Assembly (NCBI GenBank): GCA_947306425.1
Contig: CAMZGO010000009.1
Span: forward strand, 1 to 50,800
Reading direction: 5' to 3'
Origin: an uncultured Elusimicrobia bacterium
Lineage (GTDB): Bacteria > Elusimicrobiota > Elusimicrobia > Elusimicrobiales > Elusimicrobiaceae
DNA length: 50,800 nucleotides
How positions within the stretch are numbered: position 1 is the first letter of the stretch; each line of letters opens with the position of its first letter. The notes under the pieces are model-generated. The model saw only the letters and a program-made list of their open reading frames with translations. It had not been told where the DNA came from and searched no databases. The position numbers and the translations under genes were made by a program. Shown here piece by piece: positions 11,372 through 26,197 of this stretch.

Positions 11372-11716
11372 TTATTGCGGAACATCAAAAGTAACAATTA
11401 GTTTATCCTTATTTGTTTGTTCATTAGTTCCCCAAGCTGCATTCATGTGAATAGTATCGGTACTGGTCATCATAGTTACACAATTAAGCATAAAATTATT
11501 ATCGCAAACCGGTTTTCCGTAGAGTTCCATAATTGCTTGAAATGCCATATATTGGTCCAAACAGCTGTCAGCAACTATATCAGCCTCCAAAATACGTTCT
11601 GTTCTGGAAAGATTAGAACTTCTTGTAACTGCATATCTAAGCATTAAAACAGAAAATGCCGCCACAATTAACCCAACAACTATTACTTGCATTAAAGCAG
11701 AACCTTTTTTTGACAT
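11372..11716 (-). CDS. Small pilin-like membrane protein (PilX-type minor pseudopilin)
   Basis: A 114-residue protein starting MSKKGSALMQVIVVGLIVAAFSVLMLRYAV. A short basic leader is followed by one hydrophobic helix, as in PilX/GspK-like minor (pseudo)pilins. It lacks the canonical G-FTLxE cleavage site: KKG is followed by S and position 5 is M/Q rather than E. Three cysteines lie in the short periplasmic part. It abuts the upstream prepilin gene with no gap and has a GGGG ribosome-binding site. Assignment depends mainly on topology and place in the operon. Confidence 0.65.
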   Translation of the reverse strand: MSKKGSALMQVIVVGLIVAAFSVLMLRYAVTRSSNLSRTERILEADIVADSCLDQYMAFQAIMELYGKPVCDNNFMLNCVTMMTSTDTIHMNAAWGTNEQTNKDKLIVTFDVPQ

Positions 11717-12418
11717 TTAACGCCCCTTTTTCCTTACAAAATATCGTTTAAATTTAAAAAATACAGGCGGTATATCACTGCTGAAATTCCTCTCAACCGT
11801 ATAATCCAATAAAAGTTCCGGATAAATAACATCTTCATTTACAGGTATCGTTACAGTAAAAGATGAAACATAAGGCATTATAAGTTCTTTATTTTCATTC
11901 TCTTTACAGTAATTCCTGGCATTATTAACGAAGGTACTTATCAGTATATTTTCATCCTCACCGTCCAAAAAGGTATTGCTGCACTTGAAAATAGTATTAT
12001 TCTCAAACCTATAAACAGTATAACTTGGCTTAACGCATCGTTCTTGTATGCTTGTTACATTTTCCACAGTTGCCCAATTCTTATTGCAAGCAGGTTTTGT
12101 TGTTCTGACAAGCTTTGTATTATCAGCTAAATCTACTGAAGCATTTTTAACAGAAATATACTCATTGGCAATGCAAGGATTTCCTATATTCTCAACTGCA
12201 GTTAAACTCCAAGGACAAATAATATCATTGGCAGAAACAAAATCCGAATAAAATTTTCTCAAGAAACTTGTACTTTCATTTTTTATAATTGCCTGACGTT
12301 GTGCTTGCGATGTATGATTTGAAGATGTCTTCCACATCGCAACAAGAGAGAGCATAACCATCCCCGTTATGAAGATGGAAACCAATAATTCCATTAAAGT
12401 GAAACCCTTTTTTGTCAT
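11717..12418 (-). CDS. Prepilin-like protein (PilW/GspJ-type minor pseudopilin)
   Basis: A 233-residue protein with leader MTKKG before FTLMELLVSIFITGMVMLSLVAMW, giving a type III signal peptide with mature Phe1 and Glu5. The C-terminal part is a globular domain with six cysteines. The start used is the ATG at 12418, 4 bp after the upstream stop, because the longer in-frame start at 12439 would put seven extra residues before an already complete leader. Larger size and position among the prepilins fit PilW/GspJ, which caps or primes the pilus; sequence alone does not separate the subtypes. Confidence 0.8.
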   Translation of the reverse strand: MTKKGFTLMELLVSIFITGMVMLSLVAMWKTSSNHTSQAQRQAIIKNESTSFLRKFYSDFVSANDIICPWSLTAVENIGNPCIANEYISVKNASVDLADNTKLVRTTKPACNKNWATVENVTSIQERCVKPSYTVYRFENNTIFKCSNTFLDGEDENILISTFVNNARNYCKENENKELIMPYVSSFTVTIPVNEDVIYPELLLDYTVERNFSSDIPPVFFKFKRYFVRKKGR

Positions 12419-12422
12419 ATAC

Positions 12423-12890
12423 TTAATCCGTACAGTCAATGTTCATCTCCAATATATCAAAGCCTGACTCGGGCAAAGTGTTAGGTCTACTTCCACATTC
12501 TGTTGTATTAGAAATCCAAGCATTAGGCTGCGCGGAAGATAAATACGCTTTATAATTAAAGTGTACCGAGTCATTCTCCGGAGTATATTTTTTACATAAG
12601 TTCTTAAAATTAAAGGTAAATAAATCATCACAAGACCTAAGATCTTGCGTATTACCACCGAAATCCACTTTACAATTGGGCAAAGTTTTTAAATGGCAAT
12701 TTGGATTATTACGGCAATCTTTAAGCATCATATAGGCACTTTGTACGCTATAAAGAACTTCTTCTTTCTCAGAAGAAGAAACTATAGCGCGGCGTCCCGA
12801 CATCAAGGCAGAAAACACCGCCCCGACCATAACGACAACCAAAAACATAGCAATAACCGCTTCAATTATCGTATACCCTTTATTTTTCAT
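12423..12890 (-). CDS. Prepilin-like protein (PilV/GspI-type minor pseudopilin)
   Basis: A 155-residue protein with leader MKNKG before YTIIEAVIAMFLVVVMVGAVFSALMS, so prepilin peptidase should cut after Gly5. Tyr replaces the usual Phe at mature position 1, and Glu5 is kept. The globular domain is unusually Cys-rich (eight cysteines, including the CRNNPNC cluster). It is the third of the six pilin-like genes counting from the promoter-distal end. GGCGGTG lies upstream of the start. Confidence 0.8.
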   Translation of the reverse strand: MKNKGYTIIEAVIAMFLVVVMVGAVFSALMSGRRAIVSSSEKEEVLYSVQSAYMMLKDCRNNPNCHLKTLPNCKVDFGGNTQDLRSCDDLFTFNFKNLCKKYTPENDSVHFNYKAYLSSAQPNAWISNTTECGSRPNTLPESGFDILEMNIDCTD

Positions 12891-12907
12891 AACACCGCCT
12901 AAAGAAA

Positions 12908-13378
12908 TTAGTCTGTACTTTCCTTATAAATGCGCCCTAAGGAATCAATACAAGCACATTTGCCTTTGTATATACCGGAATTATTATCACCAACCATTGA
13001 TACTACCGATTCAGAACATACAGAACATTCCCCCCCTACCGAAAATGTATAACGTCCGTTCAGTTCGGTTGGATAGTGCAAATATTTGCATCCTAATAAA
13101 AAGGAAGGCGAAACTGATAACCCCGTTTGCCCGTAAATATCCTCTATCTTACAACCGGGTATATTATCTGAACTTATAGTACCGGTAATTGTGGTACCCG
13201 GATAATCCTTTTCAAAATTCATACGTGCCTCATTAAATTGACGCAAAAAAGTCTGTGCTTTACCATTGTAAGCATCATCAATATAGCCCTTTACAAAAGG
13301 CGTACTTAACATAGCTAAAAACATTAAGATTGCTATTACCGCCACCATCTCAGCTAAGGTGAACCCTTTATTATCCAT
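12908..13378 (-). CDS. Prepilin-like protein
   Basis: A 156-residue protein with leader MDNKG before FTLAEMVAVIAILMFLAMLSTPFVKG. Prepilin peptidase cleavage after Gly5 leaves Phe1 and Glu5, and a Pro interrupts the helix as in many type IV pilins. A six-cysteine globular region contains GECSVCSES and GKCACIDS near the C terminus. GAGGTT precedes the start. It sits between two other prepilins, with 2 bp to the upstream gene and 17 bp to the downstream one. Confidence 0.85.
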   Translation of the reverse strand: MDNKGFTLAEMVAVIAILMFLAMLSTPFVKGYIDDAYNGKAQTFLRQFNEARMNFEKDYPGTTITGTISSDNIPGCKIEDIYGQTGLSVSPSFLLGCKYLHYPTELNGRYTFSVGGECSVCSESVVSMVGDNNSGIYKGKCACIDSLGRIYKESTD

Positions 13379-13380
13379 TG

Positions 13381-13887
13381 TTATTTAACCTCTATAACCT
13401 TATCAGAATCAGCATCAAAATACGCACAAGTTGGAAATATTGAATTGCCCTCTTCTTTTGGTTTCATGTATGCTGTTGTATCATCTCCGTCAAAAGTACC
13501 CGAAGCTCCGCAGCTAGAAGGACAACCTAAATAGAAAGTAAAATTATCATCAAACCCTAAACTTTTTTCCGCATAACCGCAACGGAAAATATCGTATGCC
13601 CTGTCAAGCGTAGAATTCCCGCTTCCGCAAGATTTATTCATTTCAGTTCCACTAAGTTCTAACATCAAGCATCTGTCTATTTTTCCGGAATTCTCTATTT
13701 TATATCTTTCTACCGCACCGCCTAAAGCAGCAAGCTTCCCCTTTGCTGCATTCAATTTACCTTCATCTACAGTATTATTATAATAGTAAACGCTGTAACT
13801 TGCAAGTACCGCAACTAAAATTACTGTTACCAGCAATTCCATTAATGTGAAACCACCTTCTCTTTTTATAATATTATATGCCTTCAC
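13381..13887 (-). CDS. Prepilin-like protein
   Basis: A 168-residue protein with leader MKAYNIIKREGG before FTLMELLVTVILVAVLASYSVYYYN, a standard prepilin cleavage site with Glu5. The first codon is GTG (13887-13885), 14 bp inside the upstream gene and preceded by GAGG. There is no in-frame ATG before the cleavage site, so the GTG is likely real. Six cysteines are present, including GCPSSCG. The NAAKGKLAALGGAVERYKIENSGK helix resembles the GspG-like pseudopilin core. Confidence 0.82.
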   Translation of the reverse strand: MKAYNIIKREGGFTLMELLVTVILVAVLASYSVYYYNNTVDEGKLNAAKGKLAALGGAVERYKIENSGKIDRCLMLELSGTEMNKSCGSGNSTLDRAYDIFRCGYAEKSLGFDDNFTFYLGCPSSCGASGTFDGDDTTAYMKPKEEGNSIFPTCAYFDADSDKVIEVK

Positions 13888-14368
13888 AATTTTCTAACCT
13901 CTCTTTTTTAATAACCGCCGGGTTGCTGCGAAGTATGGAAAATTTATAGCACTCCCCGACATCATCTTCATCTTTTTTAAATTTACATGAGGCAGACGTT
14001 ACTTCACTTGCCGTTCTCGTTCCTATCGTATATATGCAATTTATTCCCTTTAAAGAGTAGTCAGTTTCCGAACCGGGCCTATGGGCCCATCTGTTTCCAT
14101 TATTTAGATACGCATATCCCTGCGCTGAAGCATCAGTTAAAATATTAAGGTTGGACTGCTCAAGCTTTCCTTCTATGTTACCTAACGGATTAACTTCATA
14201 AAATAACTTTACAGCATTAGTTAATTCAACCAAACCGATTTTTGCTTTCTCCATTTCATTAGTTACGGCAGAATTTTTAAAAGAAGGAGCTACCAATACA
14301 GCCAAAGCGGCAATAATAAGAGTAATAACCACAACCTCAATTAGAGTAAAACCCTTTCTGTTTAACAT
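13874..14368 (-). CDS. Prepilin-like protein (GspG/GspH-type)
   Basis: A 164-residue protein with leader MLNRKG before FTLIEVVVITLIIAALAVLVAPSF, a classical type III signal with Glu5. It is first in the row of six pilin-like genes. The start at 14368 is supported by a GGGGGG ribosome-binding site and a 4-bp gap after the pilC/gspF stop; an upstream in-frame start would overlap that gene. Four cysteines lie in the globular part. The NEMEKAKIGLVELTNAVKLFY segment matches the amphipathic second half of a pilin alpha1 helix. Confidence 0.85.
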   Translation of the reverse strand: MLNRKGFTLIEVVVITLIIAALAVLVAPSFKNSAVTNEMEKAKIGLVELTNAVKLFYEVNPLGNIEGKLEQSNLNILTDASAQGYAYLNNGNRWAHRPGSETDYSLKGINCIYTIGTRTASEVTSASCKFKKDEDDVGECYKFSILRSNPAVIKKERLENCEGI

Positions 14369-14372
14369 TGTT

Positions 14373-15599
14373 TTACCCCCCGATTTGTGACATTTTAAAT
14401 ATCGGCAAGAATATTGACAACACAATTACAGCAATTATGCCGCCTATACCGACAATTAAAATAGGGTCAATCATAGCAGAAAAGCGCGCTAAAAATTGGT
14501 TTACCTGTTCCTGATAAAACAAGGCCAAAGTATCCATAATGCTGGGCAAACGTCCGGATTCCTCACCCATAAGCATCATTTCCGTCATCAAACCCGGAAA
14601 GACTTTTGCATTTCTAAAGGCCAATGATAAACTCTTTCCAGATGCAACATCTTTCTTTGCATTTATAATAGCATCTCTTATCACAACGTTACCTGCAAAT
14701 GATTCTTCCATAACAGTCAATACATTGATAATACTTACACCACTGTTTAACAAAGTCGCCATATTATTTAACAGCTTTTCATAGTAAATGTTTGAGATAA
14801 ACTTACCAAATATAGGTACCGTTAAGTGAAATTTATGCCACATCCTTCTACCTGAAGGAGTTGAAATTGCAAAATAAAATAATCCTATCAAAGCACCTAT
14901 AACTAATATTATCAGAAGCCAATGTTGTGCTACGGCATTGGAAAAAGCCAAAACGACTTGTGTAATCATAGGAAGTTCTATATCAAAATCCTTAAAAATA
15001 TCGGCAAAAGTAGGGACAATACCGACAACGAAATAAGTCAATACACCCATAGACATAAGAAACAACACAGCAGGGTAAGAAACAGCGGTAATAATTTTAC
15101 CTTTTAAAAGTTCTTTTGACTTAACATATTTTGCTACCTGTTGCAGGGCATCTGCTAAATGACCGCCGACCTCACCGGCCTCAACCATTGAAAGCCAAGT
15201 ATGGTCAAATACTTTTGGGAATTTATTTAAGGCCTCATGCATGGAATTACCACCTGCAATATCCCTGGCTACTGCAACTAAAACAGGGCCGAAATCCTTA
15301 TCAGTAGAATATTCACCTAAAAGTGAAATAGCCCTTATCAAAGGTACACCGCCGCTAAGCAAAGTAGAAAGCTGCTCGGCAAAAAAGGCCAAAACATGCC
15401 CTTTTATTTTTTTGGAACCTACACGTGACCCAGAAAAGAAAGCCCCAAAGGAGGCCTTTGCTTTTTCCGGTTTTATTTCTAAAACGATAAATTCTTTGGC
15501 CTGCAAAGCATAAACTGCTTTTTCCATAGTATCGGCACTTATGGAACTTTTAAACAAACGGCCGGCTGTATCTTGAAGAGTACAATTAAATTTTGGCAT
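14373..15599 (-). CDS. pilC: Inner-membrane platform protein PilC/GspF
   Basis: A 408-residue polytopic protein with two T2SSF domains (about 70-195 and 270-395), each carrying the family's GG..L..AL and GE..G.L......A motifs (VEAGEVGGHLADAL and MGEESGRLPSIMDTL). Transmembrane segments lie near 170-195, 220-245 and 375-400. The platform protein couples the ATPase to subunit insertion. A short N-terminal FNCTLQDTAGRLFKSSISAD domain is typical. AAAGGA precedes the ATG. It lies 23 bp after the ATPase gene, the usual order B-C or E-F. Confidence 0.93.
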   Translation of the reverse strand: MPKFNCTLQDTAGRLFKSSISADTMEKAVYALQAKEFIVLEIKPEKAKASFGAFFSGSRVGSKKIKGHVLAFFAEQLSTLLSGGVPLIRAISLLGEYSTDKDFGPVLVAVARDIAGGNSMHEALNKFPKVFDHTWLSMVEAGEVGGHLADALQQVAKYVKSKELLKGKIITAVSYPAVLFLMSMGVLTYFVVGIVPTFADIFKDFDIELPMITQVVLAFSNAVAQHWLLIILVIGALIGLFYFAISTPSGRRMWHKFHLTVPIFGKFISNIYYEKLLNNMATLLNSGVSIINVLTVMEESFAGNVVIRDAIINAKKDVASGKSLSLAFRNAKVFPGLMTEMMLMGEESGRLPSIMDTLALFYQEQVNQFLARFSAMIDPILIVGIGGIIAVIVLSIFLPIFKMSQIGG

Positions 15600-15622: not shown

Positions 15623-17362
15623 TTATTCGTTTTCCAAGGTAACTGACAACACTTCATCCACTGTAGTTATGCCGGTTACAGCTTTCCGCCAACCACTTGC
15701 GCGCAAATTCCAAGCCCCTGTAGACCTTGCTGCCTTTTTAAGTTCCAGCAAATCTTTTGTTTGATAGATGGTATTACGCATGCTTTCATTTACCTTGTAT
15801 ACTTCATAAATTGCCCTTCTGCCCATATACCCTGTTCCGGAACATTTCGGACAGCCGGACGCTTTAAAAAATGTCCAAGCTGCTTTATCTTTGGCAGATA
15901 AACCCGATTCTCTTAATATTTGCTCAATAATATCTTGGCTTGGAACATAAGGAACTTTACAATAAGGGCAAAGCATCCTCACCAAACGCTGTGCAGCTAC
16001 TAAAGCAAGAGAGCTGGCAAGCAAAAACGGCTCTATACCCATATCAATTAAACGAGGTACGGCGCCGATAGCCTCATTAGTGTGTAGAGTAGATAAAACC
16101 AAGTGACCCGTTAAAGCCGCTTTAAGGCACGCCTCCGCCGTTTCAGAGTCTCTGACTTCACCTACTAGTATAACATCAGGGTCTTGACGTAAGAAAGAAC
16201 GTAACCCTGCTGCAAAAGTTAAACCAATCTGCGGTTTAACCTGAACTTGGCTGATACCTGATAGTTTGTATTCTACAGGGTCTTCCAAAGTCATAAAATT
16301 ATATTCCGGTGATTTGATTGAAGTCAATACTGCGTTTAATGTTGTTGTTTTTCCTGAACCGGTAGGGCCTGTCAAAAATATCAATCCGTGCGGTAAAGCT
16401 GCTGCATCCAAAAAGTCTTTCTTTTGCCTAGGTTCAAAGCCGAGTTTATCAATATTCAAATCACCGCTACCTTTATCTAAGACACGAATAACCAATTTTT
16501 CGCCAAAAACCGTAGGACATACTGACACACGAAATTCTACCGTTCTATTTTGAAATTTTACGGCGAAACTGCCGTCTTGAGGCAAACGTTTTTCGGCAAT
16601 ATCAAGTTTTGATAAAATCTTGATACGGGAAATTATTGCCCCTACTGCTTCCCTTGCCGGGGACGTCCTTTCATACAAAGAACCGTCAATCCTAAAACGT
16701 AAACTTACTCTTTCATCAAATAACTCAAGGTGTATATCGGATACCCTTTCCTGCATTGCCTGACGCAAAATGGCATTAACCATTTTTACATAATGGGCAC
16801 CTGCACCGGTTACTTCCTTATCAAGATCTACTTTTGCGTCCGGATTGGAAATTTCATCTAAGTTTTCCATAGAGTCCGGGTCCGCTTCTTTTACTTCCTC
16901 TGAGATAACTTCCTCAAGTAAATCTTTCTTAGCGTAAAAAACATCCAGGGCTTGAAATAATTGAGACTTGCTTGCAATAAACGGTTGTATTTCAAGCCCG
17001 CTCATCATACGTAAATTATCCAGTAAAAATACATTGGAAGGATCATTTAAAGCAACAGCTAAGGTATTATCCTCAACAAATAATGGCAAGATGACATTTT
17101 CGCGTGCGAACTTTTCCGGCACATATTTGGAGAGATTTTGTTCCTTTTCAGGATTTAAAATACCATTTTGCTTGCTGGCATAAGGCACTGAAAGTTGTTT
17201 AGAAATTGCTTGGGTAAGTTCCTCCTCACTTATTATACCCAGTGCAATAAATGACTCATTAAGAGAATTACCGTTTTGTTTCGCATGCAGTTCAGCCTTC
17301 TTTAAATTCTCTTCCGATAACTTACCGCTATCCTTTAAAATATCTATCAACTGTTTTGCCAT
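15623..17362 (-). CDS. pilB: Pilus assembly / type II secretion ATPase PilB/GspE
   Basis: A hexameric cytoplasmic ATPase that powers subunit extrusion. The 579-residue protein has an N-terminal MshEN/T2SSE_N domain (about 1-145), then a RecA-like core. Walker A GPTGSGKTT is at about 332-340, an Asp box and Walker B (DPDVILVGEVRD, about 394-405) follow, and a His box is present (TGHLVLSTLHTNEA). The tetracysteine zinc motif (CPYC about 465-468, CPKC about 504-507) marks the PilB/GspE extension class rather than PilT. No PilT retraction ATPase is encoded in the window. GGAAGG lies upstream of the ATG. Confidence 0.95.
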   Translation of the reverse strand: MAKQLIDILKDSGKLSEENLKKAELHAKQNGNSLNESFIALGIISEEELTQAISKQLSVPYASKQNGILNPEKEQNLSKYVPEKFARENVILPLFVEDNTLAVALNDPSNVFLLDNLRMMSGLEIQPFIASKSQLFQALDVFYAKKDLLEEVISEEVKEADPDSMENLDEISNPDAKVDLDKEVTGAGAHYVKMVNAILRQAMQERVSDIHLELFDERVSLRFRIDGSLYERTSPAREAVGAIISRIKILSKLDIAEKRLPQDGSFAVKFQNRTVEFRVSVCPTVFGEKLVIRVLDKGSGDLNIDKLGFEPRQKKDFLDAAALPHGLIFLTGPTGSGKTTTLNAVLTSIKSPEYNFMTLEDPVEYKLSGISQVQVKPQIGLTFAAGLRSFLRQDPDVILVGEVRDSETAEACLKAALTGHLVLSTLHTNEAIGAVPRLIDMGIEPFLLASSLALVAAQRLVRMLCPYCKVPYVPSQDIIEQILRESGLSAKDKAAWTFFKASGCPKCSGTGYMGRRAIYEVYKVNESMRNTIYQTKDLLELKKAARSTGAWNLRASGWRKAVTGITTVDEVLSVTLENE

Positions 17363-17390: not shown

Positions 17391-19025
17391 CTATTCAGAT
17401 AAAACTGTCGGGGTTATAAAAATAACCAAATCCGTTGTGCTCTTGCTCTTTTGTTTTGAGGTAAATAGCCACCCTATTATAGGTATTTGACCTAATATTG
17501 GAACCTTGTAAACAGATTCCTTTTCAGATGACTGTAAAAGACCACCCAAAACAACCGTTTGACCGCTTTTTACGCGAACTTGAGTGGTAACGGCACGGGT
17601 AACGGTATCATAAGTATCACCGCCAGTTTCCGAAGCAACAAGATCGGAGTATGAAGGTAATACTGTTAATGTAACATAGCCCTCTTTGTTAACTTGAGGC
17701 GTTACGGTAAGTGTCAAACCAACTCTTTTTCTCTCATTACCGCTGGTGGAAGATGTACCGCTGCCGCTATCATTTTCTTTGGTGATTTTACCTATAGATG
17801 CATCCCTTGAAGAAGTAACCATTGCCTGATTATTGTTCATGGTTATAACTTTCGGTTTACCCAAAGAGCGAGCTTCTTGGCTTGTCATTAATGCCCTAAA
17901 AATTACAGTTAAATTTGTCCAATCTAAAGTCGGTATTGTACCTTCTATGGTACGTTTCCAAGTACCTAAAGTGTCATCCCATTCTACAGTAGGGGTTAGA
18001 CCAAAATACTTAAGTATTGAATCTGAGCCTGTGCCAGGAATACCTTTATGAGAACTACCGAAATAATCCCACGGCATTTGTGTTGAACCGCCTGTAAACT
18101 TTCCTTCCACATTCCAGTTGAAACCGACATCATATCCACTGCCTTTTGAAACTTCTATAACTTGTGCTTCAATAAGGATTTGAGGTGCTTTGACGTCAAG
18201 TTCTTCCAAAATGCTTTCTATTTGAGGAAAGACCTCAGGAACGTCAGTAATAATAAGTTTATTTGTTCTAGAGTCAATTGCAATCTTCCCTTGCTTTGTA
18301 AGCACACTTTGAATAACACCTAAAATAGCACTGCTTCCATTTCCTTGAATAGTCTGGGCATTTGAATTACCCAAGCTCAAACCGGAACCAGCTCCGCCGC
18401 CGCTTGACGAACTATCAAAAACATTAAAAGAAGTACCTGAGCCACTACCGAAACTGCTGCTTGTTACATCAGCAGGCATAACAGAATTTAAATCTGTTGA
18501 AAGTGACGTATTTGGCTGTAAAGATACATAATTCAAAGTATAAACCTTTGTTATGGTGTTAGGGGCTTCTTCAGATCTGCTGGTAATAACGTAAGAATCA
18601 CTCTTACCAACCCTTTGATAGGTCAAACCCTGTACTCTTAACAAAGTATCCAATGCTTCCCTTACAGTTACATTTGTTAAAGAAGCAGATATCTTTTTGC
18701 CGGAGAATTCCTCGCCCATAATAAAGTTAATTTTTGACTGGGCTGAAATACTGTTTAAGAAAGTACCTATTGGTACATTGTTTACCCTAATGGTTACTTT
18801 CCTGTCTAACGGAGATAATGCATCCGCCTGTCTATATAAGGAAGATGCAGTCGGCTCAGTCTTTACTGTTTTAGGCCTGCTGGTTACTTCCCCATAATTT
18901 TCATTTACAACGTCAATATTTGGCCCTGCTGAATTTGTCGTTGATTGTTGTGCAAAAGCAAATTGCGCACACAACTGAAACGAAGCAAACACCAGTGCCA
19001 AAGTGAGTGCTGTACTCTTTTTCAT
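17391..19025 (-). CDS. pilQ: Outer-membrane secretin PilQ/GspD
   Basis: A 544-residue secretin that should form the outer-membrane gate. It has a signal peptide (about 1-25, ending FAFAQ) and an STN/N0-type domain (about 55-135, PIGTFLNSISAQSKINFIMG..). A Ser/Gly-rich linker is followed by an N1-type domain (AIDSRTNKLIITDVPEVFPQIESILEELD). The C-terminal secretin barrel contains VRVKSGQTVVLGGLL and the signature VPILGQIPIIGWLF. The start at 19025 is chosen because AGGAGG sits 7 nt upstream; the longer in-frame start has no such site. It lies 54 bp after the PilP-like gene. Confidence 0.94.
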   Translation of the reverse strand: MKKSTALTLALVFASFQLCAQFAFAQQSTTNSAGPNIDVVNENYGEVTSRPKTVKTEPTASSLYRQADALSPLDRKVTIRVNNVPIGTFLNSISAQSKINFIMGEEFSGKKISASLTNVTVREALDTLLRVQGLTYQRVGKSDSYVITSRSEEAPNTITKVYTLNYVSLQPNTSLSTDLNSVMPADVTSSSFGSGSGTSFNVFDSSSSGGGAGSGLSLGNSNAQTIQGNGSSAILGVIQSVLTKQGKIAIDSRTNKLIITDVPEVFPQIESILEELDVKAPQILIEAQVIEVSKGSGYDVGFNWNVEGKFTGGSTQMPWDYFGSSHKGIPGTGSDSILKYFGLTPTVEWDDTLGTWKRTIEGTIPTLDWTNLTVIFRALMTSQEARSLGKPKVITMNNNQAMVTSSRDASIGKITKENDSGSGTSSTSGNERKRVGLTLTVTPQVNKEGYVTLTVLPSYSDLVASETGGDTYDTVTRAVTTQVRVKSGQTVVLGGLLQSSEKESVYKVPILGQIPIIGWLFTSKQKSKSTTDLVIFITPTVLSE

Positions 19026-19079
19026 TACTTCCTCCTGTTTAAGTCCTTTTAACAATTCTCTACTACTTTAAATTTTTCT

Positions 19080-19583
19080 CTATAATAAAGGCAGCTTACG
19101 TTCAAACCTCTGCCCTTTGTAAACGAACCACACGGAATCATCCGTTATTGATATAATTTTCGCATCTAGAACTTTATCCCCAATAGCAACAACCTCCCCG
19201 TTTACTATTGCTTCTTTCCCTAAAATACCATCAACACTTATCTTGTACATTACTGCTCTTGCGGGGTAACGTTCTAATTCTTCCTTTAACATCTGTTCTT
19301 TAAGCAGACGTTCTTGTTCCGCCTTGGCGGCACGCTCACGCGCCTCCGCCTCCGCTTCTCTGCGGCGTTGGTCCGCTTTAATTTGTTCCTCTATTTTGCG
19401 AACTTCTTCTTTAGATAAAAACGGATTTCTTCTATTGGGAACGAAAGACACTTTCTTAACCGGTACTGTATTTACTGCTGCACCTTTCACTGGCTTTGAT
19501 GCTATAACAGATTCTTTTTTAACCTGTGAAAAAGAACAAAGCGGTATGCCTAAAATTATGAACATACAAAGAAACTTTTTCAT
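19080..19583 (-). CDS. pilP: PilP/GspC-like secretin-interacting periplasmic protein
   Basis: A 167-residue exported protein (signal about 1-19, ending SFS-Q). The middle is a very charged Glu/Arg/Ala coiled coil (about 58-105). The C-terminal small beta domain (VDGILGKEAIVNGEVVAIGDKVLDAKIISITDDSVWFVYKGQRFERKL) matches the HR/PilP fold that touches the secretin N0 domain. Proteobacterial PilP is a lipoprotein; no clear lipobox is seen here. Its ATG shares one base with the pilO stop (TAATG), and its position between pilO and pilQ supports the call. Confidence 0.8.
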   Translation of the reverse strand: MKKFLCMFIILGIPLCSFSQVKKESVIASKPVKGAAVNTVPVKKVSFVPNRRNPFLSKEEVRKIEEQIKADQRRREAEAEARERAAKAEQERLLKEQMLKEELERYPARAVMYKISVDGILGKEAIVNGEVVAIGDKVLDAKIISITDDSVWFVYKGQRFERKLPLL

Positions 19584-20173
19584 TACTTTTTACCCCCTTT
19601 TAAGTCAGGAAAATCTTTATCCTGCACAAAAATCGTATTTGTATTAAAAGTGACGGACAATTTTTCCAACTCACCTGGTTTGCGAGCTACTTTTAAGTCA
19701 GAAATACGTAAGAAACTGGGATAATTTTCTATAATTTCCACTACTTTTCCTAGCTGTTCGTATGTAAGTTCTGCAGTTATGGGAACTGTAGAAATTGTAA
19801 AAACACCGTCTACAACTTTTGTCTCATTCCCGTTTACCAATGACCTTTCATCTAAAGAAGCCTGTTCCCTTATTGTAACAATTTGCGTTCTATGCCATAC
19901 ATCTTTTTGTTCATTTGACGGCAATTCCTCAATCAATTTAACGTATTTAGACCTATTACGTAAATATTCTTCCCTATTTTCCAACTCAACCGCCTGAGCT
20001 TCTGCCTTCTTCTTCATCTCTGCAATTTGGGAAGAAGTACCCTTATGCAAAGATACAATAATAATAGCAGCAAACAGCAGTACAAGGAAAGGCCTTGCAA
20101 AGGGCCTGAAGTTTTTATCTTTAAACATTGTTATGGAATCTGACAATCCCATTTTTATTTTTCGTATTTTCAT
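19583..20173 (-). CDS. pilO: PilO-like inner-membrane alignment protein
   Basis: A 196-residue bitopic protein with one membrane helix (about 26-46, ARPFLVLLFAAIIIVSLH), a coiled coil (about 50-85) and a ferredoxin-like periplasmic domain (TISTVPITAELTYEQLGKVVEIIENYPSFLRISDLKV) typical of PilO. Start used is the ATG at 20173, which overlaps the upstream stop as ATGA; an in-frame GTG at 20185 adds four residues and has no better ribosome-binding site. PilO with PilN aligns the platform and secretin. Confidence 0.83.
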   Translation of the reverse strand: MKIRKIKMGLSDSITMFKDKNFRPFARPFLVLLFAAIIIVSLHKGTSSQIAEMKKKAEAQAVELENREEYLRNRSKYVKLIEELPSNEQKDVWHRTQIVTIREQASLDERSLVNGNETKVVDGVFTISTVPITAELTYEQLGKVVEIIENYPSFLRISDLKVARKPGELEKLSVTFNTNTIFVQDKDFPDLKGGKK

Positions 20174-21744
20174 TTCTGACCACACTTTATAGTAAATTTA
20201 GTTCCTAAAACATCATTTCTGTTTCTTGAAGATTTATCGGCACTAAAATCAATTTTTGAAGAGTTTCTACAAACATCTGCAAAATCCAAATCTTCCGAAA
20301 TATCTCCCCTGAATTTATTGCTTAAAGCCAATTCATCCTTTTCACCGGCAACTGTATTGGCAGTACCTTCCAAAGACAAGTAAACATTGCCTTTTTTAAC
20401 ATCAAAGTTATAAGGATATTCTATCACAAAAGAAGATAACCAAATGTCATCAGGTAATACCCTCGGCAAGGCAGAAAGTTTTCTGGTAAAATAAGGATCT
20501 ATTAATAAACCTTCTAATTTCCTTTGGTTATTTTTTAAGTTTGATACCCTGCTTTTAATCTGATCAGCATAAAGACCCTGAAAATCTGCCACTTCTTTTT
20601 GCTCTTTCCTAGTTGCCTGTAATTGTGCCGCTGTTACAACGGAAGTTATTTGCATTATAAGAGCATACACAATCATTATACCCACTACAACAGATGTTAT
20701 AAGCCAAGCAAAAGTAGTCGCCCCGATTTCTTCATCGGAAGATCGATTCTTTTTATAAAAATCTATATCCGGTACTTTTTTATTGATAAACTTTAAACAA
20801 GCACCTAAAACAGCCATTTCCGAAAATCCTTCCACCCGAAAGCCAAAGACTTCACTTATTTTATTTACCCTCACATGTTGCTTAACTTCGCTTTCCAATA
20901 TAGGAACCCAAAAATCACCGTCATCAGAAACTATTGCCACGTCTTCAAAAGGATTTCTCTCAAGTTGTTTAGAAATAAAATCCATACAATTTGTTACTTC
21001 AAGGCGGTTACGCATTCCCAAGGACCTTTGTACTTCCACCTCCCTAAACATTAGAGGTACTTTATTCAAAGCAAATAGGAATTGGCCCTTTTCAGAAGTG
21101 AAATTGGCATATATTATACCCTTTTCTTCCGAACTATCTTTATCTATTTGCGTCAAAAGACGATAAGTAGACAAAGCAGAACATTCAACTGCAACCAAGT
21201 TAAGACCGATTTTACTCATAGCCTCTTCTAAAGCTGCAACAATTTTAGATGAGGTCATGCAAAAAACAACACCTAATTTTTTTGCTTTACTCAAAGGAGC
21301 ATCAAACGGATATACATAGAAATCATACACTCCATTTTCAAATGGATAATGTATATATTTTCTTGCTTGGAGAGGTATTGTCTGCTTCCAATAAGAACGT
21401 GATATATTTTGAATCACGAAATGACGGTATATACAAAAAGCCGGATCTAATGAAACCACTACATTTTTCGTATTAAACTCACGGCTTTCTATTATTTTCT
21501 GTATCGGTTCCAACCAATGTTGTGTTGAAGAGAAAAAACCTTCGTTTAACTCCGCAGGTTTTAAATCCTCTTGCGGAACATCACTAATGGGTAATTTTAT
21601 TAAGGAATTAACTTCCATACCCCCAGCGACTGTTGTAACTTGTGCAACATAAACATCCGTCAAAGATATATGTATGCCGATACACTCCACATAATCGGAA
21701 CGCTTTATGCCTGTAGCTTTATTGATAATGCTAGTTATGTCCAT
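20170..21744 (-). CDS. PilM-PilN fusion protein (GspL-like architecture)
   Basis: A 524-residue protein. Residues about 15-320 form a PilM-type actin-like cytoplasmic domain (VECIGIHISLTDVYVAQV, then QARKYIHYPFENGVYDFYVYPFD, then LNLVAVECSALSTYRLL). One membrane helix follows (about 344-366, TFAWLITSVVVGIMIVYALIMQI), then a coiled coil (about 370-410) and a PilN-like periplasmic domain (LSALPRVLPDDIWLSSFVIEYP..). In most type IV pilus operons pilM and pilN are separate genes; joined in this order they match type II secretion GspL. There is no separate pilM or pilN in the operon, so the fusion replaces both. AGGGGA precedes the ATG. Confidence 0.82.
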   Translation of the reverse strand: MDITSIINKATGIKRSDYVECIGIHISLTDVYVAQVTTVAGGMEVNSLIKLPISDVPQEDLKPAELNEGFFSSTQHWLEPIQKIIESREFNTKNVVVSLDPAFCIYRHFVIQNISRSYWKQTIPLQARKYIHYPFENGVYDFYVYPFDAPLSKAKKLGVVFCMTSSKIVAALEEAMSKIGLNLVAVECSALSTYRLLTQIDKDSSEEKGIIYANFTSEKGQFLFALNKVPLMFREVEVQRSLGMRNRLEVTNCMDFISKQLERNPFEDVAIVSDDGDFWVPILESEVKQHVRVNKISEVFGFRVEGFSEMAVLGACLKFINKKVPDIDFYKKNRSSDEEIGATTFAWLITSVVVGIMIVYALIMQITSVVTAAQLQATRKEQKEVADFQGLYADQIKSRVSNLKNNQRKLEGLLIDPYFTRKLSALPRVLPDDIWLSSFVIEYPYNFDVKKGNVYLSLEGTANTVAGEKDELALSNKFRGDISEDLDFADVCRNSSKIDFSADKSSRNRNDVLGTKFTIKCGQK

Positions 21745-21759
21745 ATTTTCCCCTGTACT

Positions 21760-23586
21760 TTAAAAATTACCGGAATAATTTTCTTCCCCTGATGAATTAT
21801 CATCGTAGGGATTAGCCGTTACATCATAAGGATTTTGCGTTGCCCCGTAAGAAGCAGAATTATCACCCTCAGGCTCTTGAGGAATCTCTGCTATATTATC
21901 GGTTTGTGCTTCCTGCCCGTTATTCAACGTAGCCGGCAACACATCTTCCGATGAATCTTCAGGCATAACAACGCTAACAAGTTTTTTACCTGGTTTTGTC
22001 CAAAGCCTTTTTTGTGTATAATCTAAATTACCCTGTTTTGCTGTATTATTCAGTTCTGCCTTTTCCACATCGGCTTCTGTCTTTATGAAAGCATTCTCAA
22101 TCTTTCTAGGGTCTTCCTTTAATACAAGCTGCCTCTTTAAAATACGTTCGCGACCTTCTTTATCAGTTGCTTTTAAAACCACCGTGTACTTTCCTACAGG
22201 TAAAAACTGTCCGAAGAACTGTTTACGTCCGTTCCAAAAAACTTGATGTATTAAAGCTTCTTCACCGGAAAGTTGCTTTACAACATAATAATGCCCATCT
22301 GTACTGTGGCTGACTATCTGTAAAGTCCATTTCTGTACCGGTGCACTTGCCTCAGTAACGGAGAAATCAATAACAAAAGTTTCACCTAAAGCGGGGGTTA
22401 TTTCTTTAAACGGATATACAGCCAAACTTAACACGGGCGGCAAATTATTTTCTTGTAACTTTGATTTTAAACGTGCTTTGCCCGTATAATCAAAAACTAT
22501 AGAAATACCTGCCAAATCGCTGAATTTTTCCGGCGGCTCTTGGGTTGTTAAACCCATATTGAGGTTCATTCTTGCCGGGGAAATACCGCGGTTTATTAAA
22601 TAGGAATTAAGCGTCACTGCCTGGCGAACACCTTGCAGGGTAACTTCATCAGTATAACTACCCTCCGGTAAAATGAAATAGGCTGGTGCATTTTCCAAAA
22701 TCATTAAGGAGTAAATATCATCTAGCGCATCATGGGCCTTTTTATTAATTGCAGCGCCCTTAAACAATGCACTAGCGGTGATATCAATAGCATCAATATG
22801 CCCGGAACGAAAATAAACTTGAATATCTTTGTTTTCTTTAAATCGTGTAAGAATTTCGTCCCTCATCTCTATACGTTTCATTTCCTCAGTTTGTTTTTGC
22901 AAAGCACGAACTTTCTTTGCGCTACCTTTAGGGAAAGAATCTTCCTCAATTATTTCTTCTGTTTGTTCCGGTTCTTTTTCCTCTTCATTTACTACAAGAG
23001 CAGTGCTTTCTTTGGAATCAGCATCTTTATCAGTGTCTTTTGATTCTTCTTCTATTTTAGCATCTTCCTTTTCTTCTGATTCTTTCTGTTCTTTAATTTC
23101 TTGTTCATTGGCAGCCGCTACTGTTTCTTGCACAGAGGGAACTTCCTCAGTCTTGGATACTTCCGGTTTAGTTAAAACCTCCTTTTCCTCTTGTACAGGA
23201 ACTTCTTTCAATGAAGATAGGGGAACCTCTGTATCTCCTTTATCTTTTTTCTTTGAATTTTTGTCAAATAAATTTTTACCTTGGACACCAACGTTTTGTC
23301 TGTCTTCCAATTCCTTATCGTAGGGAACTTGTTTTGGCGGAACAACTCCCCCCCTGTCAAAGTGAATAAGGTTCACATATTCATTAGCCTGGGCAATTTG
23401 ATCCGGGTTACCCGTAACGAACACATCTATAAATCTGTCCATTGCTTCTTCATAACGGCCGTCAGCATAAAGTTTTTTACCTTTTGATAAAGCCTCATCT
23501 GCCCGATTATCAAGTGCCAAAAGTTGTCCGCAGGACAACAAACTCAAACCAACCATTATTGCAATAACTTGGGTTCTTAATCTCAT
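21760..23586 (-). CDS. Pilus-operon head lipoprotein with OmpA-like and Ig-like domains
   Basis: A 608-residue exported protein, probably a lipoprotein (LLSC, Cys19). In order it shows a TPR-like pair (about 28-70), a long Glu/Lys/Ser-rich acidic linker (about 108-240), and an OmpA-like segment (about 262-368). The OmpA-like part has EGSYTDEV in place of EGHTD and keeps the later Arg in the RQAVTLNSYLINRGISPARM pattern. A FlgD-type Ig-like domain (about 385-490) ends WNGRKQFFGQFLPVGKYTVVLKATDKEG. The acidic tail repeats NPYD. The ATG at 23586 is preceded by AAAGGGG. It is first in the pilus operon and may anchor the machine to peptidoglycan; the domain calls are by eye. Confidence 0.7.
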   Translation of the reverse strand: MRLRTQVIAIMVGLSLLSCGQLLALDNRADEALSKGKKLYADGRYEEAMDRFIDVFVTGNPDQIAQANEYVNLIHFDRGGVVPPKQVPYDKELEDRQNVGVQGKNLFDKNSKKKDKGDTEVPLSSLKEVPVQEEKEVLTKPEVSKTEEVPSVQETVAAANEQEIKEQKESEEKEDAKIEEESKDTDKDADSKESTALVVNEEEKEPEQTEEIIEEDSFPKGSAKKVRALQKQTEEMKRIEMRDEILTRFKENKDIQVYFRSGHIDAIDITASALFKGAAINKKAHDALDDIYSLMILENAPAYFILPEGSYTDEVTLQGVRQAVTLNSYLINRGISPARMNLNMGLTTQEPPEKFSDLAGISIVFDYTGKARLKSKLQENNLPPVLSLAVYPFKEITPALGETFVIDFSVTEASAPVQKWTLQIVSHSTDGHYYVVKQLSGEEALIHQVFWNGRKQFFGQFLPVGKYTVVLKATDKEGRERILKRQLVLKEDPRKIENAFIKTEADVEKAELNNTAKQGNLDYTQKRLWTKPGKKLVSVVMPEDSSEDVLPATLNNGQEAQTDNIAEIPQEPEGDNSASYGATQNPYDVTANPYDDNSSGEENYSGNF

Positions 23587-23618: not shown

Positions 23619-23646
23619 ATTATATCAATTTAAAGGCATTTGTAAA
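23619..23646 (-). promoter_or_regulatory. Promoter of the pilus/secretion operon
   Basis: On the minus strand, -35 TTTACA (23646-23641), a 16-bp spacer and a perfect -10 TATAAT (23624-23619) lie 32 bp upstream of the first start codon. It is in the gap after the O-antigen-ligase genes, which read the same way. Confidence 0.7.
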
Positions 23647-23667: not shown

Positions 23668-26196
23668 CTATATATTAACATTTTTTAACCTGTTTTTGGC
23701 AAGTTCATCATAAGGATCCGAATATAAGATATCCCCCAACAAAGCTTGACTTTCCTGCAAATTCCCACACTTTTGCAATGCCAAAGACAGTGAAAAATTA
23801 TATGCTTTATTCAACTTTTCCTTAGGTTTTACCTGCTTCAAAATTTCCGATGCCCTACAATATTTGCCTTGTTTAAAATAAAATTCTGCCAATAAAGCAT
23901 TGGCGTCAATATCATTGGGATTTTGAGATAAAAACAGTTTAATATCTTTTAAAATTTCCATATCTTGCTTTATTTTTAAGCGGCTTTTCAAATCATTTAA
24001 CCTTTCGGCTTTATATATAAAATTTTGTTCTTCCGGATTATTTGTGCAGATAGTTAAAATGTTCAAAGAAGATTTGTCAAAAATATTTTTCTGCAAAGTT
24101 TGCAAAGCAAATTTTTTGGCGTTGAGGCAATTGTCTTCCTTAAAATAAATTTCTGCCAAATAGGATGGTAAATTTATTTGATACGGTAATATTTCTATCA
24201 AACTTTCCAACAAAATTTTATCTTCCGCTAAAACCGTTTTTTGATTGCTTAAAATATTTGCAAATAATTCCGCAGCAGGTGTGTATGTGGGCAATAAAAA
24301 CAAATTTTTGCGCAAATTATTTAAGGCTTCTTTTGTAGCACCGTTTGCATAATACAATGCAGCAAGACGAAAGTAAAATTCATAAAAAGCAGGGTAAAAA
24401 CTAATGGCTGTTTCAGATATTTCCTTTGCTTTCTCCATATTGTCAAGCATAATATAGGTATTGACCAAACTATAAAACGGTTCAGGGCGAGCATAAGAAA
24501 AATTAAGGGCTTTATTCATCATCTCTACACCTTTAAGATAGTCTTCGGTTAACAAAAACTTGTACCCTTGTAATTCATATTTCTGTGCAATAAATTGTTT
24601 AGCCTGCCAAACAATCAAAACATAAATCAAACAAAAGATAAAAATTAAAACTGCGCTTATAGCAGTCCTTTTTAATTTTAAAATTCTTGTTTTTGCACCT
24701 AAATTATTTAACAAAGAAAATATAAACCAAAAGGCAAAACTGACTAATAAAGTCCTCAAAGTGATATTAAACAAATTGTCAAATAATACACTAATTAAAC
24801 CAAAAAGCAGGGACAGATATAATATTTTTTCTTCTTGGTTTACCGTTTTAATCTTTTTGTAAGATATTATAAAAAATGCAATCCATATTCCCAAATAGGC
24901 AAAAAAGGAAATTAAACCGCCGTCACTTAAAATTTCAAGATACTCGTTATGTGCTGCATTTGCCTGCATTTTTATTTTATCCAATGCAGGGTTTTGGGCT
25001 ATCAAATTACCCTGGCAAAAAGGGAAATTAAGTTGGAAAGAATTAGTACCTTTCCCGATAATAGGCGAACTTTTAAAATTTTGCAAAGCACAATTCCACA
25101 TCATTAAACGTTGATGTAATGGTTGTATAAAATTTTCCCCCCTTAGGGAAATATTGTTTAAAGTAAATACTTTTTTTATCTCTGAAACCCTTTCTTTCGG
25201 GATAGACCCACCGCTGTATTTTAAACCGGCATTAAGGCCGTAAAAACAAACACAAAAAACAAAAAACAGAAAGATGATTTTGGTACTTTTACTTATAAAT
25301 AAACTTATAAAATTTACTGCAAAAACCAAAAAGACAAAAATTGCCCCAAATATTCCAATCCAAGCGGAACGAGTGCCGGAAACTGCCAAAAATAAAGCCA
25401 AAATAAGAGTAAAAAAAGCACTTATTATGATATCTTTTCTTCCTTTTGCTTTTAAAAACAAAACTAAGGAATAAGGTAAAAATAACAATGTAAAAGAAGC
25501 CAAAAAATTGGGATTACCGAATGTGGAAACTGACCTTGCCCCAAATTCTTTTGAAATATCTATCTTCCAAAACAAATCAAACCCTAGTGCTTGCAATACT
25601 CCATACAAACAAGAACAAAAACAGGCGGCAAACAAAACTTCAAATAATTCTTTAACGCCGTAATTTTTTAGATGGTTATAACAAATATAAGTACCGCCGG
25701 TAAAAATTAAAATTACAACAAAAGGGCTTGCCTGTATTTTCCATAAAAGCCAAAGCAAAGCCCATAACAAAATACGCCTTAAAAATATGTAAGAAGATGA
25801 AGAAAAGCTAATTTTCCAAACACCTGTTTTAGCAAATAAAAAACCGAAAATTAAACCAAAAATTAAATAATCGGCCTTACGGGCAAATTCATTTAACAAG
25901 GCAATTTTATAATCACTGAAAATATAATTAAGAAACAGGGAAAGCAATAAAGAAAATAAAAAAATAAATAAGATGAAATCAATGCGGGAAAGCTGTAAAT
26001 TTATTTCTTTTTTAAAATAAATCTCCGCCAAACATATAAGAATAAATAACCCGCCGAATATACTTAAAAATAAAGGCTGAACAATGAACGGATTCTGGGT
26101 GGTATTTGTTAAAAATATAAGCGGGCAAACAAATAAACAAACAGTAAGAGAAAACCCCTTTAAAAAATTAAAAAAAATTAAAAGTTTATTTTGCAT
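23668..26196 (-). CDS. O-antigen ligase/polymerase-family membrane protein with C-terminal TPRs
   Basis: An 842-residue protein whose N-terminal ~490 residues form about a dozen membrane helices with Wzy_C/O-antigen-ligase features: STFGNPNFLASFTLLFLPY, VSGTRSAWIGIFGA and the periplasmic-loop motif GKGTNSFQLNFP..NAAHNEYLEILSDGGL with its conserved His. The C-terminal ~330 residues are soluble and hold TPR-like repeats. The family joins glycans to lipid A-core, or to proteins when of the PglL type; which applies here cannot be decided. It begins 1 bp after its paralogue and ends just before the pilus promoter. The sequence is very A+T-rich. Confidence 0.82.
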   Translation of the reverse strand: MQNKLLIFFNFLKGFSLTVCLFVCPLIFLTNTTQNPFIVQPLFLSIFGGLFILICLAEIYFKKEINLQLSRIDFILFIFLFSLLLSLFLNYIFSDYKIALLNEFARKADYLIFGLIFGFLFAKTGVWKISFSSSSYIFLRRILLWALLWLLWKIQASPFVVILIFTGGTYICYNHLKNYGVKELFEVLFAACFCSCLYGVLQALGFDLFWKIDISKEFGARSVSTFGNPNFLASFTLLFLPYSLVLFLKAKGRKDIIISAFFTLILALFLAVSGTRSAWIGIFGAIFVFLVFAVNFISLFISKSTKIIFLFFVFCVCFYGLNAGLKYSGGSIPKERVSEIKKVFTLNNISLRGENFIQPLHQRLMMWNCALQNFKSSPIIGKGTNSFQLNFPFCQGNLIAQNPALDKIKMQANAAHNEYLEILSDGGLISFFAYLGIWIAFFIISYKKIKTVNQEEKILYLSLLFGLISVLFDNLFNITLRTLLVSFAFWFIFSLLNNLGAKTRILKLKRTAISAVLIFIFCLIYVLIVWQAKQFIAQKYELQGYKFLLTEDYLKGVEMMNKALNFSYARPEPFYSLVNTYIMLDNMEKAKEISETAISFYPAFYEFYFRLAALYYANGATKEALNNLRKNLFLLPTYTPAAELFANILSNQKTVLAEDKILLESLIEILPYQINLPSYLAEIYFKEDNCLNAKKFALQTLQKNIFDKSSLNILTICTNNPEEQNFIYKAERLNDLKSRLKIKQDMEILKDIKLFLSQNPNDIDANALLAEFYFKQGKYCRASEILKQVKPKEKLNKAYNFSLSLALQKCGNLQESQALLGDILYSDPYDELAKNRLKNVNI

Positions 26197-26197
26197 T

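What the first reader, a model, noticed from the sequence alone, without database searches (positions are those of the whole stretch)
21760..23586. Unusual lipoprotein heading the pilus operon
A likely lipobox, TPR-like pair, ~130-residue acidic linker, degenerate OmpA-like segment, FlgD-type Ig-like domain and NPYD-repeat tail are joined in one protein that comes first in the operon, ahead of the PilM-PilN fusion. I know no standard pilus or secretion component with this make-up. A peptidoglycan- or membrane-tethered scaffold for the secretin, analogous in role to TsaP or FimV, is a reasonable guess.
Basis: partly seen in the sequence, partly recalled or inferred. Interest (0 to 1): 0.6.

Follow-up and report, generated by a model that had tools for sequence, protein, structure and literature searches.

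The report
Pilus-machine partner protein of Elusimicrobia
The gene at the head of this bacterium's main pilus operon encodes an exported multi-domain protein of no named family that sits beside the pilus genes across most of the class Elusimicrobia, and it is most likely a periplasmic scaffold of the pilus machine, though no experiment has shown this.

Summary
The gene is real: window 21760-23586, minus strand, 608 aa. No Pfam or NCBIfam model matches it. Family profiles confirm most of the described make-up: signal peptide, short TPR-like pair, disordered linker, degenerate OmpA-like domain (hhalign 95.7% to canonical OmpA; shuffled controls <0.3%), FlgD/PKD-type Ig domain, disordered tail. 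Three corrections. (1) It is probably not a lipoprotein: the Cys is not conserved, and most orthologues show type-I-like signals. (2) Members outside the gut clade carry a second C-terminal OmpA-like domain, apparently lost once in the window's clade; many members that lack it end in NPY[DE]. (3) Both OmpA-like domains keep the peptidoglycan-binding Arg but lack the GHTD motif, and one is dispensable, so classical wall tethering is doubtful. 'Heads the operon' is supported: a near-consensus promoter lies just upstream, unique in the genome and conserved in relatives. Linkage is extreme: all 126 genomes of the class with hits to both genes have it upstream of the PilM-PilN fusion on the same contig and strand. 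Best explanation: a dedicated periplasmic accessory scaffold of this PilMNOPQ machine. Being part of the machine is well supported; the scaffold mechanism is inferred. New architecture for a known kind of role.

The parts
23619..23646 (-). Promoter-like site TTTACA-16-TATAAT with extended -10 (TG), ending 32 nt upstream of the ATG
   Evidence: 11 of 12 consensus matches; only site at up to 1 mismatch in the whole genome; same element TTTACAAA-N7-x-AAATTG[ACG]TATAAT in most Elusimicrobiaceae loci scanned
21760..23586 (-). Gene X, 608 aa exported multi-domain protein
   Evidence: 38 of 40 nearest relatives have it
23512..23586 (-). Signal peptide, res 1-25 (LLSC lipobox-like motif not conserved; type I cleavage after LLA/LFA likely)
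23356..23502 (-). TPR-like helical pair, res 29-77
   Evidence: AF2 helices; family profile to BamD E 0.013 and FimV TPR E 0.14
22936..23346 (-). Disordered acidic linker, res 81-217 (31% D+E)
   Evidence: pLDDT mostly under 40; composition
22834..22923 (-). Predicted long helix, res 222-251, before the OmpA-like domain
   Evidence: AF2, pLDDT about 57-77
22480..22833 (-). Degenerate OmpA-like domain 1, res 252-369; near-invariant Arg321 kept, GHTD motif absent
22114..22443 (-). FlgD/PKD-type Ig-like domain, res 382-491 (WNGR...G..LP.GkY.v.L.A.D)
21982..22023 (-). Conserved short segment around YTQKRLWTKPGKK, res 522-535
21802..21834 (-). NPYD...NPYD C-terminal motif, res 585-595, at the end that carries the second OmpA-like domain in other families
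20170..21744 (-). PilM-PilN fusion (GspL-like)
   Evidence: TIGR01175 PilM E 4e-9, below its cut-off; weak PilN Pfam hit E 0.11
19583..20185 (-). PilO-like
   Evidence: position and order in the operon only; no family match
19080..19583 (-). PilP/GspC-like (T2SSB-type C-terminal domain)
   Evidence: Pfam T2SSB E 8e-4, below its cut-off
17391..19055 (-). PilQ secretin, no AMIN domain found
15623..17362 (-). PilB/GspE assembly ATPase
   Evidence: TIGR02538 PilB E 3e-177, below its strict cut-off
14373..15599 (-). PilC/GspF platform protein
   Evidence: Pfam T2SSF E 1e-50
11372..14425 (-). Five or six pilin/pseudopilin-like genes
   Evidence: ORFs with type IV pilin-like N-termini; only the first (13874-14425) was scanned (N_methyl, GspG)

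Best explanation
X is a dedicated, Sec-exported periplasmic accessory subunit of the PilMNOPQ-type (T4P/T2SS-like) machine of Elusimicrobia. It is made together with the machine from its own conserved promoter. The N-terminal TPR-like pair docks on a component of the envelope complex. The long disordered linker lets it reach across the periplasm. The OmpA-like and Ig-like domains form the structural core that holds or aligns the secretin and alignment complex. Shown here: gene structure, domain identities by profile, a conserved promoter-like site, near-universal linkage to PilMN, and a loss of the second OmpA-like domain that is most simply a single event. Inferred: periplasmic location (from the signal peptide), docking by TPR, scaffold role. 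Both OmpA-like domains look repurposed for protein contacts rather than classical DAP-dependent wall binding; in the window's clade the second was lost and the C-terminus often ends in a short NPY[DE] motif.
For: Upstream of PilMN on the same contig and strand in 126 of 126 genomes with both hits, median 88 nt between matched parts. 14 class genomes have neither gene by single-sequence search. The strand order X-PilMN-...-PilQ is kept in loci of several families of the class. Own near-consensus promoter-like site, unique in the genome and conserved across three genera. Domain assignments with controls. No AMIN domain found in PilQ in 7 of 7 orthologues tested and no LysM or FlgT family matched in X orthologues, so the wall-anchoring domains known from Pseudomonas T4P (AMIN, LysM; PMC5285504) were not found in these two proteins. 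Comparable scaffolds are documented: FimV and PilQ-AMIN localise PilO (PMC5285504); GspB/OutB anchors the T2SS secretin (PMC9239104, title and abstract only).
Against: No interaction, localisation or phenotype data. The TPR-like assignment is weak and the AF2 models are of low confidence. The same architecture (TPR, OmpA, Ig, OmpA) occurs in two families (L135, L136) beside a Cache-HAMP histidine kinase, without a PilMN fusion match, so the architecture is not exclusive to pilus machines. Gene linkage could reflect shared need (for example envelope stress) rather than physical contact.
Confidence: 0.55

Rival explanations
1. Classical peptidoglycan tether: the OmpA-like domains bind DAP-containing wall and so anchor the secretin complex, as TsaP, FimV-LysM or PilQ-AMIN do elsewhere.
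For: OmpA-like fold by profile; the binding Arg is kept in both domains; PilQ lacks an AMIN hit.
Against: The GHTD motif is kept in nearly all canonical OmpA proteins of these genomes, but its Asp is absent from all OmpA-2 copies listed and the motif is absent from OmpA-1. In PorE this Asp and the Arg make the DAP contacts (PMC7192894). OmpA-2 is lost altogether in the window's clade.
Confidence: 0.2
2. Pilotin or secretin-assembly lipoprotein (PilF/PilW, GspS type): the TPR pair carries PilQ to the outer membrane.
For: N-terminal TPR-like pair after the signal peptide; LLSC in the window and LAGC in the G018 orthologue.
Against: No lipobox-like match in 51 of 56 orthologues; most invariant columns of the class-wide alignment lie in the OmpA-Ig core, not the TPR.
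Confidence: 0.12
3. Sensor or regulatory envelope protein that couples the state of the wall or pilus to signalling, and happens to be encoded with the pilus genes.
For: Homologues with the same domain order lie immediately upstream of a dCache-HAMP histidine kinase in two other families.
Against: X is followed by PilMN, not by a kinase gene, wherever both are detected; other neighbours were not all annotated.
Confidence: 0.1

Closest known systems
FimV/HubP
   Same: T4P-associated envelope protein with an acidic stretch and a TPR; needed for PilQ multimers and PilO localisation in Pseudomonas (PMC5285504)
   Different: No LysM hit; TPR-like pair at the N-terminus after the signal peptide; OmpA and Ig domains instead
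TsaP (LysM protein of T4P secretins)
   Same: Accessory partner of a T4P secretin (proposed role)
   Different: No LysM or FlgT-type domain found in X orthologues
PorE (PG1058) of the type IX secretion system
   Same: Envelope protein of a secretion machine, N-terminal TPR, OmpA_C-like domain, thought to be a scaffold (PMC7192894)
   Different: No WD40 propeller or CRD found; GHTD motif not kept; mostly no lipobox; two OmpA-like domains around an Ig domain in the fuller form
GspB/OutB of type II secretion
   Same: Auxiliary scaffold that links secretin, inner membrane and wall (PMC9239104, abstract)
   Different: OutB is an inner membrane protein; X has a signal peptide and different domains. 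The operon's 167-aa PilP-like protein, not X, carries the T2SSB-like domain
OmpA/Pal family (PF00691)
   Same: Fold family of both OmpA-like domains by profile
   Different: Wall-binding motif degenerate; embedded in a larger protein tied to a pilus operon

Membership tests
OmpA-like domain superfamily (PF00691) | Sequence profile match | tested here: met
   OmpA-1: hhalign 95.7%, E 1e-8 against canonical OmpA, shuffles under 0.3%. OmpA-2 of relatives: hhalign 98.2%; PF00691 matches 15 of 21 members, best E 3e-15; PDB E 1e-10. The window protein alone has no Pfam hit
OmpA-like domain superfamily (PF00691) | beta-alpha-beta-alpha-beta fold | tested here: inconclusive
   AF2 pLDDT mostly under 50 in this region with a 5-sequence alignment
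DAP-binding OmpA/Pal proteins | GHTD Asp and RA Arg | tested here: not met
   Arg kept in nearly all members, but the GHTD Asp is absent from all 15 OmpA-2 copies; GHTD motif absent from all 21 OmpA-1 copies. Window OmpA-1 has a TD one residue off register
FlgD_ig-type Ig domain (PF13860) | Profile match and beta-sandwich fold | tested here: met
   hhalign 90%, E 1.4e-6, controls at most 0.3%; AF2 matches PKD/FnIII folds at Z about 8. Below the Pfam threshold on its own
Bacterial lipoproteins | Conserved lipobox Cys | tested here: not met
   5 of 56 orthologues have any lipobox-like match; the four genus members aligned with the window have no lipobox at this place
FimV/HubP | LysM plus C-terminal FimV TPR domain | tested here: not met
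   No LysM among Pfam matches of 21 orthologues at E 0.1; TPR-like pair is N-terminal
PorE | TPR, WD40, CRD, OmpA_C order | tested here: not met
   No propeller or CRD match; Ig domain instead
T4P accessory scaffold (functional class) | Physical contact with the PilMNOPQ complex | not testable with these tools
   Only genomic linkage is shown

The most novel reading that the evidence does not exclude
X is an obligatory, class-specific subunit of the Elusimicrobia pilus machine in which OmpA folds have been converted from wall binding to protein binding, doing the job that AMIN and LysM domains do elsewhere; in the gut lineage the second OmpA-like domain was replaced in function by a C-terminal NPY[DE] docking peptide.
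Probability: 0.25. Interest if true: 0.62.

Novelty: new variant of a known kind. Interest (0 to 1): 0.5.

Why it matters
The core parts of type IV pilus machines are well known, but how they are held in the envelope of deep-branching phyla is not. A protein that no Pfam or NCBIfam model names, yet lies upstream of PilMN in every genome of the class where both were detected, is a strong candidate for a missing machine subunit. Its domain loss gives a natural experiment on which part matters, and a culturable relative (Elusimicrobium minutum, an isolate by my own knowledge) could make it testable.

Tried and rejected
AF2 of the full protein and of residues 218-491 with the five rows allowed gave mean pLDDT 46-48; Foldseek with the core model gave no match at E 0.001 or better, so the OmpA fold could not be confirmed structurally, which says nothing against it. 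In the VIA-align second look only the Ig part was effectively tested. The hhalign rows involving FlgD are invalid, because the FlgD set was empty and old output was reread; one search replaces them. Lipoprotein reading rejected on conservation. The genome-contig scan reached only four close relatives. Weak hits in other classes of the phylum were not followed up and may be ordinary OmpA or TPR matches. Papers: none on this protein found; the TFF survey PMC6668835 mentions Elusimicrobia only for Tad systems.

Full report
What is there. The ORF lies on the minus strand at 21760-23586 and encodes 608 residues. Its genome (1.44 Mb, 21 contigs) holds one copy. Related contigs carry Elusimicrobium/Elusimicrobiaceae titles. 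No Pfam or NCBIfam model matches the protein. The next genes downstream are a PilM-PilN fusion, PilO-like, PilP-like, a PilQ secretin, a PilB/GspE ATPase, a PilC/GspF protein and several pilin-like genes. The genome has two further PilT/PilU-like ATPases and one Tad/CpaF-like ATPase elsewhere; these names rest on my reading of the sequences. This operon therefore holds the only PilB/GspE-type ATPase among the four PF00437 matches.

Is it really at the head of the operon? A TTTACA-16-TATAAT site with an extended -10 ends 32 nt before the ATG. It is the only match in the genome at up to one mismatch. The same element, TTTACAAA-N7-x-AAATTG[ACG]TATAAT, stands before X in most Elusimicrobiaceae loci scanned, in three genera, with a fixed 16-nt spacing and a variable spacer sequence, and occurs once per locus even in 20-kb loci. 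It was not found in the L007, L008, L016, L020/L057 and L021/L058 loci or in the loci of the second family of the order; some further blanks are loci cut by contig ends. One or two Wzy/O-antigen-ligase-like genes lie upstream on the same strand in most loci, so X probably heads its own transcript but follows a conserved gene pair. The promoter is a consensus match with conservation, not a measured start.

Conservation. X was found in 38 of 40 nearest genomes and all 31 of good quality, and in 132 of 147 genomes of the class. The PilMN fusion was found in 127 of the same 147. Counting both lists: 126 have both, 1 has PilMN only (G153, 85% complete), 6 have X only (several at contig ends) and 14 have neither. 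I compared the coordinates of the 126: all have X upstream of PilMN on the same contig and strand, 11-2166 nt between matched parts, median 88. In the two loci with the largest gaps pilin-like genes lie between.

Domains. A family alignment of 21 members (A2) shows what a single sequence hides. Members outside the window's clade have a second OmpA-like domain at the C-terminus; PF00691 matches 15 of the 21 members, and the profile of that part matches solved OmpA domains at E 1e-10. The internal OmpA-like segment is more degenerate but links to canonical OmpA by profile comparison (95.7%, E 1e-8; five column-shuffled controls 0.1-0.24%), by PDB search (best E 0.01, hits nearly all in the OmpA family), and directly in L058 and L135. 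The Ig segment links to FlgD_ig (90%, E 1.4e-6; controls at most 0.3%), and the AF2 model of that part is a beta sandwich. The TPR-like pair is weaker.

Loss and replacement. The second OmpA-like domain is absent from all members of four Elusimicrobiaceae genera examined and present in the two other genera of the family and in the other families. In a tree of X core plus PilMN the six sampled members without it form one clade with support 1.0, so one loss is the simplest reading. Among 40 distinct members without it, 24 carry NPY[DE] in the last 70 residues, against 0.18 expected from shuffled tails; of 25 members with the domain none has the looser motif.

Wall binding. In PorE the DAP residue is held by the GHTD-type Asp and an Arg (PMC7192894). 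Canonical OmpA proteins of these genomes nearly all keep GHTD and RA (they were partly selected by such a pattern, so this is a yardstick and not a census). X keeps the Arg in both OmpA-like domains in nearly all members, but the Asp is missing from all OmpA-2 copies and the GHTD motif from all OmpA-1 copies. Together with the loss of OmpA-2 this makes classical wall binding doubtful, though not excluded.

Lipoprotein? LLSC is present in the window, but the four genus members aligned with it have no lipobox there and only 5 of 56 orthologues have any lipobox-like match. One of these, in G018, is a good lipobox (LAGC). Anchoring by acylation is at most lineage-specific. No signal-peptide predictor was available; this is a motif survey.

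Mechanism. The best-supported statement is that X is part of, or serves, this machine. That it is a periplasmic scaffold docking by its TPR end is inference from domain types and from known accessory scaffolds: FimV and PilQ-AMIN in Pseudomonas (PMC5285504) and GspB/OutB in T2SS (PMC9239104, abstract). PilQ here shows no AMIN domain in 7 of 7 orthologues. Rivals are a classical wall tether, a pilotin and a sensor; the sensor reading gains some weight from homologues beside a histidine kinase in two families.

Verdict.

Noticed in passing
window 23668-28357 (-): Two adjacent Wzy_C/O-antigen-ligase genes with C-terminal TPR repeats lie upstream of X, and one or both are conserved there in most loci; possible pilin O-oligosaccharyltransferases or polysaccharide polymerases.
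   Followed up: partly
window 23619-23646 (-): Near-consensus extended -10 promoter-like site, unique in the genome at up to 1 mismatch, with conserved bases beyond the hexamers (TTTACAAA ... AAATTG) across three genera.
   Followed up: yes
L135:8816-12631 and L136:4296-7414: TPR-OmpA-Ig-OmpA homologues in two other families of the class are each followed by a dCache-HAMP histidine kinase gene instead of pilus genes.
   Followed up: partly
window 20170-21744 (-): PilM and PilN are fused in one GspL-like protein in this clade; several families of the class lack a detectable PilMN fusion.
   Followed up: partly
L138, L139, L140, L141: Short TPR plus degenerate OmpA-like proteins in families f7 and f10, three of them in loci that also hold a weak Wzy-like match; relation to X not resolved.
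   Followed up: no
L143 (G000 contig C3): A Tad/CpaF-like ATPase with a fused N-terminal ParA/CpaE-like domain (735 aa) in the same genome.
   Followed up: no
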